Positions 5,958 through 48,100 of a DNA stretch of 64,000 nt are shown one piece after another. The stretch's first letter is position 1. Every line of letters starts with the position of its first letter. This stretch comes from Lampris incognitus (Eukaryota > Chordata > Actinopteri > Lampriformes > Lampridae). A model generated the notes under the pieces. The model worked only from the letters and a program-made list of their open reading frames with translations, ran no database searches and was not told where the DNA came from. The stretch lies in assembly GCF_029633865.1 (NCBI RefSeq), contig NC_079223.1, positions 8,461,432 through 8,525,431 of the forward strand, written 5' to 3'. Both the position numbers and the translations under genes were made by a program.

Positions 5958-6648
5958 CGGCGGCACGGCGGTGCAGCGGTTGCCTCACAGCAAGGAGGCC
6001 CCATGGTAGTCCAGCCTTGGTGGGTCATCCCGGGTCGTCCTCTGTGTGGCGTTTGCATGGTCTTCCCACGGCCCAAAGACATGTAGGTCAGGTGAATTGG
6101 CCATACTAGTGTAACCGGTTACTTTCTTGCCCGGTGCGGGATTCGATACGGGGTGTACCGCACCACAAGGCGACGTCACTAACCGCTCGGCTAAAGGGTC
6201 AGACTCGCTACCTAGGGGCTAACGTGTCTTATTAGTAGTTTAAGGTCGTCACCCTCTCCCGGAAGCGCGCCTTCGCGCTCTGTTCTTCCCGCGCTCCGAA
6301 GAGACTTCTGAGGATCTGCACACTTCCGGATCCCACCGCTGCCACCAATGTAACCGGTTATTTTCTTGCCCGGTGCGGGATTCGACAGGGGTGTACTGCA
6401 CCACAAGGCGAAATCGCGAACCGCTCGGCTAAAGGGCCAGACCCGTTTGCTAGGGGGCTAACGTGTCTTATTAGTAGTTTACACTAAATTGTCCCTAGGA
6501 ATAAATGTGTGTGTGTGCGTGTGCGTGTGCGTGTCCGCCCTGTGATGGGCCTGGCGGCCCGTCCAGGGTGTCTCCCCGCCTGCCGCCCAACGACTGCTGG
6601 GATAGGCCCGACCCTGAGAGCAGGATAAGCGGCTCAGATAATGGAATG
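5958..6648 (+). repeat. SINE family A, split by a miniature LTR element
   Basis: The head at 5961-6109 (GGCACGGCGGTGCAGCGG, ending CCATACTA) continues at 6484 with CTAAATTGTCCCTAGG through CAGGATAAGCGGCTC. Joining the two flanks restores the family A consensus, so the sequence between is a later insertion. Confidence 0.88.
6110..6483 (-). mobile_element. Miniature LTR retrotransposon (TRIM-like), copy 1, with tRNA-like LTRs
   Basis: Two direct repeats of about 133 bp (6110-6242 and 6349-6483, roughly 90% identical) flank 106 bp. On the minus strand the intact LTR starts TGTAAAC and ends GGTTACA. Right after it, one spacer base on, comes TGGTGGCAGCGGTGGGAT, which is complementary to the 3' end plus CCA of a vertebrate tRNA-Leu (isoacceptor ending CCCACCGCTGCCACCA). 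Each LTR holds an A-box (TAGCCGAGCGG, 6183-6193 on the minus strand in the 3' LTR) and a weak B-box (TATCGAATCC). Insertion into SINE A left CTAG/CTAA, probably a 4-bp duplication. No coding capacity. Confidence 0.8.
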
Positions 6649-6739
6649 GCACGGAATGGAACGTCATACACGCACGAATTTGTACGCGTTTGCCTCAGTC
6701 TCATTCGTCTCCATACAAAATCGGGGGTGGGGAGGGGAG

Positions 6740-45100: not shown

Positions 45101-48100
45101 GACTTGTGTAGTGCTAGTCTCGCCCTATTCCTTCCATATCAACTGTGACTCGTTTTTTTATGTGTTTTGTGTGTGTGTGTGTGTGTGTGTGTGTATACTT
45201 TTGTGTGTTTTGAGCTGTCACACACACAAACTTAGACACACGCCAACACACACAGCCAGGAACCTGTCATTGTCAGGATCCAGCCATAGTAGACCATGAG
45301 TCAACTGTAAAAGCTGCAAAGCTTCTCCTATATTTTAACAGCCTCTTTCTCCTCTTTTTGTTCTTGGAACGGCTGAGCAGAAGATAGCCCAGGAAAGGGA
45401 AAAGTTTGCAGATGAAGGCAGTATATTCTACAGCCTGGGAGAATGCGGCCTCATCTCCTTCTCTGACTACATCTTCCTCACCACCGTGCTCTCCAGTAAG
45501 TATTGGTGCATAAAGGCTCGGACCCTTTAGTTGGGTTGGACCTTTTAGTTGACTGGTTAGCGCAGTCGCCTGTGGTGCATTTGACCTGGGTTCGCGTCTC
45601 GGCTGTGGCGGTTCCCGGCTGCCCCCCAAATTCGCTACAATATCAACAACCAATGAACCTTTCTGAAGCTTTGTGCCGGCAGCCATACCAATGTGTACCC
45701 TGGCTCTGCCAAATGATGGAAGCTAAGCAGGTGTGGGTTTGGTTAGTCCTTGGATGGGAAAACTGAGTTGCTGCTGGAAGTGGTGTTGGTGAGCCAGTAG
45801 GGGGCAGTCTTTCCTCTGGTCCTACAAAAACAAACAAAAACAATAAATGTCAAATCCCAATGCCCCAGTGCAGTGATGGGGGACACTGCTGTAGGAGATG
45901 CTGTCCTTTGGATGAGACGTTAAACTGAGGTCCTGACTCGCTGTGGTCATTAAAGATCCCATGGCACTTATTAAAAAGAGTAGGGGTTCCCCGGTGTCTT
46001 GGCAAAATCCCCATCTGGCCACCTAATCATCCCCCATGTAATTGGCTTAATGATTCCTCCCTCTCCACCTCAAGCTGATGTGTGGTGAGCGTTCTGGTGC
46101 AAAATGGCTGCTGTGCATCACCCAGGTGGTGCTACACATTGGTGGTGGTTGAAGTGAGTTACCCCCTTCAATGTGAAGCGCTTTGGGTGTCTAGAAAAGC
46201 GCTATATAAATATATTATTATTGTTATTATTATTATATTATGGTCCAATGCCCAGAGATGATGTGCTGGCTAAAAGCGCGTCCCCTCTCTGGAGCCACCT
46301 GAACTCTCACTGACCTGTTTCTTCCCACCTTTGTCACTCGCTGCTTTCCCCATGCCTTAATTAAGACACCAAGGAGAAACCCTCTGCACAGTTTGACGTA
46401 CAGGCCAAGGCACTTTCCTTTTGGGTAGAAGTTGCCCAGTTTGATATCAGCTGGGTAACTTTCCACCTGTTTGGCGTAGCCTCCAGCCCTGTGTTTTGTT
46501 ACAGTTCATCATTGTTGTTGAGGAACAGTTAGCTGCCTCAGTGTCATCGTCTTCTGCCGAGTCAGTTTCGTATTAGCTGGATTTGTTTGGTAACCTGTAG
46601 AATTCAGATTCGTGCTCCCCTTCAGATTGGATCAGAGTCCAAAATAATGAGGATTTGCCTCTGGTTCAATACCCAACAAACTGGCTGCTAAACTTTTTTT
46701 TTTCTTTAAATTTCCCCCTTTTTCTCCCCAATTGTATCCGGCCAATTACCCCACTCTACCGAGCCGCCCCGGTCGCTGCTCCACCCCCTCTACAGATCCT
46801 GGGAGGGCTGCAGACTACCACGTTCCAACTCCGATACACATGGAGTCGCCAGCTGCTTCTTTTCACCCGATAGTGAGGAGTTTCACCAGGGGGACGTAAC
46901 GTGTGGGAGGATCACATTATTCCCCCCCCAGAGGAGGCGCTAGGGCAGCGAACAAGACACATACCCACATCCGGCTTCCCACCCACAGACACGGCCAATT
47001 GTGTCTATAGGATACCCGACCAAGCTGGAGGTAGCACGGGGATTCGAGCCGGTGAGCCCCGTGTTGGTAGGCAACGGAATAGACCACTATGCCAACTGGA
47101 CGCCCCTGGCTGCTAAACTTTTATTCTTAGCGTGGGATGAAAAAAAATCATTTCGTATGGGGAAAGTCACTAGGGAGTTTTTTTTTTTAAGCGTTAGGCT
47201 CTCATAAGCGCACATGCAGCACAGTTGGTCTGAGCCCCTTAGCCATGCTGATAAAATGCTGTGAAAGAAGTCTTAGTTTTGGCCTGATGCATGCATTTGC
47301 ACGTGCATGTGCTCGGACCCACACAGGCATGCGATCCCATTTATCTTGACAAGGGTACAACATGTATACGCCTCATGCACAGCCAGCGCTCAATTCCTGT
47401 GTTTCAGTGAGTCAGACTTGAACTCGCGAGTTATTATTCAGGTCGATCCATTGCGCCCTGTTGCTCTCACATTTTGTTGTATTGCTTTCAAAACAAGGGT
47501 GTTTGTGTGTGTCTGCTGTGGCCTGCAGCTCCCCAGAGGAACTTTGAGATTGCTTTCAAGATGTTTGATCTGAACGGGGATGGAGAGGTGGACTTGGAGG
47601 AGTTTGAGCAGGTTAGACTATGGTCATGCAACACAACTCGCCTCCACAAAAATCATAACACACACACACTGCATGGGGACACAAGGTCACAAAAGATCTA
47701 ACTGACCATTAGACTGGAGAATGCTTCAATATCCACTCAAAGATCGCTTTGCAGTAAACCAGAATATACTCACACACACACACACACACACACACACACA
47801 CACACACACACACACACACACACACACACACACACACACACACACACACACAGGTAATAATAGAGATGCTTGTTTTCATAGTTGGAACTCATTTGTGCCC
47901 CCTCTTAAGATGTGGTATGCTCATGGAACAATCTTTTCCTCCAGGTTCAGAGCATCATTCGCTCCCAGACCAGCATGGGCATGCGACACCGCGACCGCTC
48001 CACCACGGGAAACACACTGAAGACAGCCGGCTGCAGCTCTGCCCTCACCACCTACTTCTTTGGAGCCGACCTGAAGGGAAAGCTCACCATCGGCAGCTTC

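What the first reader, a model, noticed from the sequence alone, without database searches (positions are those of the whole stretch)
6110..45639. Miniature LTR elements whose LTRs carry a tRNA-like Pol III promoter core
Three loci (6110-6483, 20778-21532, 45519-45639) share LTRs that contain a tRNA-like segment: CCTTTA, an A-box (TAGCCGAGCGG / TAATCGGCTGG / TAGTTGACTGG), GTCGC..TGTGGTGC, and a B-box (TATCGAATCC / GGTTCGCGTCC / GGTTCGCGTCT) about 30-35 bases on. Between the copy 1 and copy 2 subfamilies this core (about 55 bp) is the best conserved part of the LTR, while the LTR flanks have diverged. The plant TRIM element Cassandra carries 5S rRNA in its LTRs; an LTR with a tRNA core in a fish would be a parallel invention and would blur the line between SINEs and LTR elements. 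I do not know of a description of this family.
Basis: partly seen in the sequence, partly recalled or inferred. Interest (0 to 1): 0.8.

Follow-up and report, generated by a model that had tools for sequence, protein, structure and literature searches.

The report
Mini LTR elements with tRNA-like promoters
Tiny gene-less LTR retrotransposons, present in thousands of copies in this fish genome, carry a tRNA-like promoter core in their LTRs; this kind of element was described in 2024 as Helenus, so this is a well-supported new example rather than a new invention.

Summary
The elements are real: two full copies (6110-6483, minus; 20778-21532, plus, 3' LTR split by an insertion) and one solo LTR (about 45504-45639). 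They belong to two repeat families of the host genome (LTR 135/interior 104 bp; LTR 151/interior 116 bp). A- and B-boxes at tRNA spacing (44/43 bp) occur in 44 of 45 family 1 and 29 of 37 family 2 sampled complete LTRs, against 0 of 410 shuffles. Family 1 makes 4-bp target duplications (19 of 27, chance 1.2); its primer-binding site is the exact complement of the host's tRNA-Leu(AAG) 3' end plus CCA. A Gypsy element with the same site and near-identical termini is a helper candidate. Kojima 2024 (PMC10886601) already described such elements as Helenus, fishes included. The core is not the best-conserved LTR part; a tRNA fold is called on an LTR in 1 of 68 loci. Pol III transcription is inferred. 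New here: the abundance (8,889 family 1 core sites), a helper candidate, and fossils in which primer-tRNA sequence beyond the binding site was copied into DNA.

The parts
6106..6109 (.). 4-bp target-site duplication, left copy (CTAG; original CTAA)
   Evidence: Empty site TACTAAATTG seen in five other copies of the host SINE in the window; flanks
6110..6483 (-). Copy 1: complete family 1 element, LTR-interior-LTR, 374 bp
   Evidence: L010
6349..6483 (-). Copy 1 5' LTR (135 bp)
6421..6431 (-). A-box of copy 1 5' LTR (TAGCCGAGCGG, 0 mismatches)
6378..6388 (-). B-box of copy 1 5' LTR (CTGTCGAATCC, 3 mismatches), 43 bp from A-box start
6330..6348 (-). Primer-binding site TTGGTGGCAGCGGTGGGAT; its last 18 nt are the exact complement of host tRNA-Leu(AAG) 3' end plus CCA
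6245..6348 (-). Copy 1 interior (104 bp), too short for any retroelement gene
6110..6244 (-). Copy 1 3' LTR; 117 of 129 aligned positions identical to the 5' LTR
6183..6193 (-). A-box of copy 1 3' LTR (TAGCCGAGCGG, 0 mismatches)
6139..6149 (-). B-box of copy 1 3' LTR (GTATCGAATCC, 2 mismatches), 44 bp from A-box start
6484..6487 (.). 4-bp target-site duplication, right copy (CTAA)
20760..20777 (+). Remnant of an upstream tandem unit: purine tract ending GAAGGAGGGGGGTAG, the family 2 majority PPT
20778..20928 (+). Copy 2 5' LTR (family 2, 151 bp)
20834..20844 (+). A-box of copy 2 5' LTR (TAATCGGCTGG, 3 mismatches)
   Evidence: position from alignment to family 2
20877..20887 (+). B-box of copy 2 5' LTR (GGTTCGCGTCC, 1 mismatch), 43 bp from A-box start
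20929..20947 (+). Primer-binding site for tRNA-Leu(CAA); this copy ends GGGAA where the family 2 majority has GGGAT
20929..21044 (+). Copy 2 interior (116 bp) ending in a purine tract
21045..21102 (+). Copy 2 3' LTR, first part
21103..21435 (.). Later insertion of another repeat family into the 3' LTR (not part of the element); flanks CTTTAG / CTTGAG look like a decayed target duplication
21436..21532 (+). Copy 2 3' LTR, second part
45504..45639 (+). Copy 3: solo LTR of the family 2 group with internal rearrangement; flanks GTAT/ATAT (3 of 4 alike)
45546..45556 (+). A-box of copy 3 (TAGTTGACTGG, 1 mismatch)
45589..45599 (+). B-box of copy 3 (GGTTCGCGTCT, 2 mismatches)

Best explanation
These are Helenus-type TRIMs: gene-less LTR retrotransposons of about 374 and 418 bp whose LTRs carry a Pol III type-2 promoter core (A-box plus B-box at class I tRNA spacing). 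Inferred cycle. TFIIIC and Pol III start a short RNA in the 5' LTR, probably about 10-15 nt upstream of the A-box, so that R begins there. The LTRs and interiors nearly always lack an oligo-T stop, so transcription runs through the 3' LTR into flanking DNA. Mature tRNA-Leu(AAG) (family 1) or tRNA-Leu(CAA) (family 2) primes minus-strand synthesis. A Gypsy element with the same primer-binding site and LTR termini supplies Gag, RT and integrase. Integration leaves 4-bp duplications. LTR-LTR recombination leaves solo LTRs and tandem arrays. Shown by sequence: anatomy, boxes, target duplications (family 1), tRNA complementarity, copied primer-tRNA sequence, repeat arrays, recent family 1 spread. 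Inferred: Pol III transcription, start site, read-through, and the identity of the helper.
For: LTR-interior-LTR anatomy in many loci. 4-bp duplications in 19 of 27 family 1 insertions, shuffled mean 1.2. Box pairs in 44 of 45 and 29 of 37 complete LTRs, 0 of 410 shuffles. Family 1 PBS equals the 18-nt complement of a host tRNA-Leu(AAG) gene plus CCA; 9 of 20 sampled interiors have it letter for letter. Family 2 majority PBS TGGTGTCAGAAGTGGGAT (7 of 23 exact) fits a host intron-bearing tRNA-Leu(CAA) gene. L095 holds tRNA-Leu nucleotides 43-85 (41 of 43 identical), that is, sequence beyond the 18-nt site, joined to an inverted family 1 LTR. Candidate Gypsy on C1 (L072, L076): same 19-nt PBS, LTR TGTAAC...GGTTACA, purine tract, protease, RT, RNase H and integrase domains. 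Family 1 is young: 45 LTRs, median pairwise divergence 3.7%; 8,889 core sites with <=2 mismatches, reversed-pattern control 0.
Against: No transcription data. Family 1's B-box (GTATCGAATCC) lacks the usual GGTTC start, and copy 2's A-box has 3 mismatches. Box columns are no better conserved than the rest within family 1 (p 0.71) and only slightly in family 2 (p about 0.04). No Rfam tRNA; ARAGORN calls a tRNA on the LTR in 1 of 68 loci, with a 21-nt intron. The lack of T4 runs is not beyond chance for the base composition, and copy 3 has one. The helper candidate shares only the PBS and very short termini, and the one copy examined has broken frames. Family 2 target duplications are weak: 7 of 17, shuffled mean 3.0. 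The sampled loci are best hits, so old copies are under-represented.
Confidence: 0.85

Rival explanations
1. Ordinary Pol II TRIMs: the tRNA-like core is a relic of a SINE once captured by the LTR, and transcription is by Pol II from a TATA-like motif upstream (ATAAATA in copy 2).
For: Box columns are not specially conserved in family 1. The block upstream of the A-box is conserved better than the core between families. Copy 2 has an AT-rich motif near LTR nt 15-21 (sequence).
Against: Both boxes and their spacing persist in two families that differ at most 5'- and 3'-flank positions. No AATAAA/ATTAAA in the five window LTRs, whereas the candidate Gypsy LTR has AATAAA.
Confidence: 0.3
2. The core descends from the primer tRNA itself (strong-stop cDNA carrying tRNA), not from a SINE.
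For: Primer-tRNA sequence beyond the binding site has been copied into LTR elements of this genome (L089, L095-L098). Family 1's A-box shares GCCGAGCGGT with the host tRNA-Leu(AAG) gene. Copy 1's 5' LTR core scores best with recalled tRNA-Leu(CAG) among 14 targets.
Against: A-B spacing is 43-44 bp, the class I value, while tRNA-Leu is class II with a long variable arm (established knowledge). The other cores fit others best: copy 1 3' LTR tRNA-His, copy 2 5' LTR tRNA-Thr, copy 2 3' LTR tRNA-Gly, copy 3 the local SINE A head.
Confidence: 0.08
3. Tandem or palindromic SINE insertions that only look like LTR elements.
For: The window is rich in two tRNA-derived SINE families; some copies are tandem.
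Against: 4-bp duplications, TG...CA ends, PBS exactly complementary to host tRNA-Leu, purine tract, solo LTRs with duplications.
Confidence: 0.02

Closest known systems
Helenus (Kojima 2024, PMC10886601), a TRIMp3 group
   Same: TRIM without genes; tRNA-like boxes A and B in the LTRs; PBS and PPT; 4-bp target duplications in animals; vertebrate families using tRNA-Leu among others; tandem arrays noted for LTR-11_DR; Gypsy as likely helper.
   Different: Sequence identity to LTR-11_DR, LTR1_LCh, LTR2_LCh or the sturgeon families could not be tested. Family 1's B-box is GTATC, not GGTTC. Here the helper candidate shares PBS, LTR termini and a purine tract.
Cassandra (plant TRIM; abstract and outline of PMC7215508, and Kojima's summary)
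   Same: TRIM with a Pol III small-RNA gene in the LTR; tandem LTR-interior arrays.
   Different: Cassandra carries 5S RNA with promoters and terminators; here tRNA-like, no 5S match, and no T4 run in 45 of 45 family 1 and 36 of 37 family 2 LTRs.
tRNA-derived SINEs (SINE A and SINE B of this window)
   Same: A/B boxes at 43-45 bp spacing in most copies found; copy 3's core resembles the SINE A head over about 43 nt.
   Different: SINEs lack LTRs, PBS and fixed 4-bp duplications and use LINE machinery (established knowledge).
Gypsy LTR retrotransposon at G000:C1 (L072, L074, L076)
   Same: Same 19-nt PBS, LTR starting TGTAAC and ending GGTTACA (GGCTACA in L074), purine tract before the 3' LTR.
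   Different: 254-bp LTR with AATAAA and no A/B-box pair; carries pol domains; no other similarity to family 1 found.

Membership tests
Helenus | Short LTR element with two LTRs and no coding region (Helenus range 311-1263 bp) | tested here: met
   About 374 and 418 bp
Helenus | tRNA-like sequence with boxes A and B inside the LTRs | tested here: met
   44 of 45 family 1 and 29 of 37 family 2 complete LTRs at <=3 mismatches; 0 of 410 shuffles
Helenus | Box motifs TRGCY...YGG and GGTTC (stated for most, not all, Helenus) | tested here: inconclusive
   Family 1: A-box fits, B-box GTATC does not. Family 2 majority: B-box GGTTC fits, A-box TAGTC...TGG deviates by one
Helenus | PBS complementary to a tRNA next to the 5' LTR | tested here: met
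   Exact 18-nt complement of host tRNA-Leu(AAG) plus CCA for family 1; tRNA-Leu(CAA) for the family 2 majority
Helenus | Polypurine tract before the 3' LTR | tested here: met
   Family 2 GAAGGAGGGGGGTAG; family 1 GGGGAGGGTGACGAC, purine-rich but interrupted
Helenus | 4-bp target-site duplication in animals | tested here: met
   Family 1 19 of 27 (shuffled 1.2). Family 2 7 of 17 (shuffled 3.0), weak. Empty site for copy 1
Helenus | PBS shared with autonomous Gypsy elements (animals) | tested here: met
   Candidate Gypsy with identical 19-nt PBS for family 1; the search for family 2 did not complete
Helenus | Sequence relation to a named fish Helenus family | not testable with these tools
   Repbase and supplements not available
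Helenus | Transcription by Pol III | not testable with these tools
   No RNA or ChIP data; Kojima also leaves this unproven for Helenus
Cassandra | 5S rRNA sequence in the LTR | tested here: not met
   No Rfam match at gathering threshold in the window or in the 20 loci tested
tRNA-derived SINE | No LTRs; mobilised by LINE with variable-length duplications | tested here: not met
   LTRs, PBS, 4-bp duplications

The most novel reading that the evidence does not exclude
A Pol III-driven LTR retrotransposon without its own terminator: the RNA 5' end is set by the A/B boxes, and the 3' end falls at a chance oligo-T run in flanking DNA, so the R region is defined from one side only. That differs from Cassandra, which has terminators in its LTR. 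If true, a Pol III transcript with a random tail would have to be packaged and reverse-transcribed by a Gypsy helper whose own LTR looks like a Pol II unit.
Probability: 0.3. Interest if true: 0.55.

Novelty: new member of a known kind. Interest (0 to 1): 0.4.

Why it matters
It shows a very successful pair of TRIMs with tRNA-like LTRs in a fish genome: 8,889 family 1 core sites, and 34 of 45 sampled family 1 LTRs at 3.0% or less from the column majority. It offers a concrete helper candidate and sequence fossils of the priming tRNA. That makes the open question of TRIMp3 biology, whether a Pol III transcript really feeds an LTR-type cycle, testable in a vertebrate. For annotation, such LTRs could be mistaken for SINEs or tRNA genes.

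Tried and rejected
Homologues in other collections: one pattern gave 0 viral contigs. A second gave 0 prokaryote contigs and one viral contig, L001; its flanks as printed do not look like the LTR, and no alignment was run, so I take it as chance. Host identity: chromosome lengths searched in papers gave only unrelated papers. Haemoglobin exons matched PDB fish chains (9tpz, 3bcq, 1spg, 1out and others) without a clear order (species of these chains recalled or unknown); two first tries used the wrong strand. tRNA detection: ARAGORN 0 in the window, 0 in the 60 loci and 0 in the 8 remaining TRIM loci. In intron mode it made 2 predictions in 68 loci: L061 tRNA-Thr on the LTR, and L064 tRNA-Pro outside the LTR match that fetched the locus. 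Enrichment of missing T4 runs: not significant. Folding of the core region with shuffles: weak (family 1 -32.4 against -29.4, sd 4.2; family 2 -52.2 against -46.6, sd 3.4) and no cloverleaf. Primer-tRNA origin of the core: disfavoured by class I spacing. Sampling bias: the TRIM loci are the best-scoring hits of three queries (8 of 47 rows, 30 of 40, 30 of 40), so young copies are over-represented. Incomplete LTRs, duplicate sequences and chains starting with a family 3 match were dropped before the counts. The 14 complete family 3 LTR matches (query: part of copy 3's LTR) were not analysed apart.
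Full report
Observation. At 6110-6483 a 374-bp element lies on the minus strand: LTR 6349-6483, interior 6245-6348, LTR 6110-6244. At 20778-21532 lies a second element on the plus strand. Its 3' LTR is split at 21103-21435 by another repeat, whose relatives lie at 10223-10335, 14769-14883 and 49649-49762. At about 45504-45639 lies a single LTR. A profile of the five LTRs finds these places and no others above its inclusion threshold in the window. 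Copies 1 and 2 belong to two related LTR families; alignment of the column majorities scores 79, shuffled mean -18, sd 9.

Is the tRNA-like core real? In a random sequence like the window, pairs of A- and B-box matches with at most 2 mismatches are expected about twice and with exactly 3 about 27 times, so one match proves little. The window LTRs have 3 and 2 (copy 1), 4 (copy 2, 5' LTR) and 3 mismatches (copy 3). Over sampled complete LTRs of the host genome the pair is present in 44 of 45 family 1 and 29 of 37 family 2 sequences at <=3 mismatches, against 0 of 225 and 0 of 185 shuffles and 0 of 45 and 0 of 37 reverse complements; at <=4 mismatches 4 of 185 family 2 shuffles also match. The commonest spacing is 44 bp in family 1 and 43 bp in family 2, the class I tRNA value. 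The core is therefore part of the LTR and not a later SINE hit. It is not an intact tRNA gene: Rfam finds no tRNA in the window copies even at E<=10 nor in the 20 loci tested, while detecting host tRNAs. ARAGORN finds none in 60 loci and, when introns are allowed, one on an LTR (L061) among 68 loci.

Between family majorities the block just upstream of the A-box has 31 of 38 identical columns, the A-to-B core 38 of 55 (A-box 8 of 11, between 23 of 33, B-box 7 of 11), the 3' flank 14 of 39, the 5' flank 6 of 13, each 6-bp terminus 5 of 6. Within family 2 the boxes are slightly better conserved than the rest (p about 0.04); within family 1 they are not (p 0.71).

Genome context. The host assembly has 1,481,484,146 bases in 537 contigs; the window is C16:8461432-8525431. 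The family 1 core pattern occurs 8,889 times (4,474 forward, 4,415 reverse) with up to 2 mismatches, reversed-pattern control 0; these are LTR sites, so elements are fewer. First-look candidates for the LTR queries were 6,325, 1,445 and 2,308, of which 40 each were scored. I read 68 loci from these searches, which are the best hits and so lean to young copies. They contain full elements, solo LTRs and tandem arrays such as L006 with five LTRs and four interiors. Family 1 LTRs differ by a median 3.7%, and LTR pairs within 14 measurable family 1 elements by 2 of 134 to 13 of 121, so it spread recently; family 2 LTRs differ by a median 18%.

Mechanism evidence. Target duplications of exactly 4 bp flank 19 of 27 family 1 insertions (shuffled mean 1.2) and 7 of 17 family 2 insertions (shuffled 3.0; weak, AT-rich sites). 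Copy 1 sits in a SINE whose empty site TACTAAATTG is seen in five other window copies, giving a CTAA duplication with one later change. The family 1 primer-binding site is the exact complement of the last 15 nt of a host tRNA-Leu(AAG) gene (L094) plus CCA; 9 of 20 sampled interiors carry it unchanged. The family 2 majority site (7 of 23 unchanged) fits a host intron-bearing tRNA-Leu(CAA) gene. Of the 8 genome sites with the extended tRNA-Leu(AAG) 3' sequence I read 7. One is a tRNA gene (L094) and one a partial copy that ARAGORN does not accept (L088). In L095 a family 1 LTR and interior run into tRNA-Leu nucleotides 43-85 (41 of 43 identical) followed by an inverted LTR; nucleotides 43-55 overlap a stretch shared by interior and tRNA. 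L089 has 26 nt of tRNA complement followed by inverted family 2 interior. L096-L098 carry 31-38 nt of tRNA and no family 1 or 2 LTR match; L096's LTR end resembles that of the candidate Gypsy. Because the binding site itself covers only the last 18 nt (CCA included), the extra tRNA letters are best read as copying of the primer tRNA into DNA past that site (inference).

Helper. The family 1 primer-binding site followed by a base other than the family majority's occurs at 145 places. Six were read (L070-L075). Four carry family 1-type LTRs or interiors (L070, L071, L073, L075). Two (L072, L074) belong to another element with a 254-bp LTR starting TGTAAC, ending GGTTACA in L072 and GGCTACA in L074, with AATAAA and no A/B pair. 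One copy was extended (L076): 3' LTR 96.5% identical to its 5' LTR, flanks ACAA/ATAA, purine tract, and protease, RT, RNase H and integrase domains of the Gypsy type; a gag match stays below Pfam's cut-off, and its frames are broken. Apart from the 19-nt site and the termini nothing shared with family 1 was found, so helper status is a candidate only. A mosaic element seen in the overlapping loci L012 and L020 joins a family 2-like LTR to the family 1 primer-binding site, which suggests template switching between families.

Transcription. No T4 run occurs in 45 of 45 family 1 and 36 of 37 family 2 LTRs, nor in 19 of 20 and 22 of 23 interiors; copy 3's LTR has one. A Pol III transcript would then read through to flanking oligo-T: 223, 388 and 780 bp downstream of the three window copies. 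The absence is not beyond chance. The minus strong-stop transfer needs only a defined 5' end, so this is workable, but it is inference.

Known or new. Kojima 2024 (PMC10886601; parts 1-4 of 6 of the text and the figure/table section read) defines Helenus as TRIMs with tRNA-like LTRs in fungi, animals and a plant, including coelacanth, sturgeon, paddlefish, zebrafish and other ostariophysans. It proposes Gypsy helpers for animal families, 4-bp duplications and Pol III promoters. Full-text searches for Helenus and for LTR-11_DR found only that paper; three broader searches put it first and listed no other description of tRNA-like TRIMs that I recognised. These families meet the testable features, with a deviating B-box in family 1. 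Whether they equal a named family could not be tested. Verdict: a new member of a known kind, well documented here.

Noticed in passing
L095 (G000:C16:10378050-10378950), positions 253-615: Palindromic family 1 element in which primer tRNA-Leu sequence beyond the 18-nt binding site is joined to an inverted LTR, apparently through a short stretch shared by the element's interior and the tRNA variable arm.
   Followed up: partly
window 6245-6348 (minus): The family 1 interior contains AGTCTCTTCGGAG, identical in sense to part of tRNA-Leu (seen in the partial copy L088), besides its primer-binding site.
   Followed up: partly
L012 near 2070 (minus), same element in L020 near 2955 (minus): Mosaic element: family 2-like LTR ending in CTCGGTTACA followed by the family 1 primer-binding site.
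   Followed up: partly
window 21537-21563: 27-nt inverted copy of the LTR tail directly after copy 2's 3' LTR, forming a near-perfect hairpin that matches microRNA precursor models far below their gathering scores.
   Followed up: no
window 45361-45504: Copy 3 starts about 10 bp downstream of what looks like a splice donor after an open frame recalled as MICU-like; Pfam gave no match to the short exon.
   Followed up: no
window, A-boxes at 1158(-), 10518(-), 14565, 15447, 26375, 63510(-) and 9006(-), 12456, 17017, 40225, 47094(-) among others: Two abundant tRNA-derived SINE families with A/B boxes at 43-45 bp spacing; copy 1 is inserted in one of the first kind.
   Followed up: partly
G000 C2:33744524-33751705: Seven tRNA-Leu(CAA)-type 3' ends within 7.2 kb, probably a tandem tRNA gene cluster.
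   Followed up: no
L061:1485-1601: ARAGORN in intron mode calls a tRNA-Thr with a 21-nt intron on a family 2/3 LTR.
   Followed up: no
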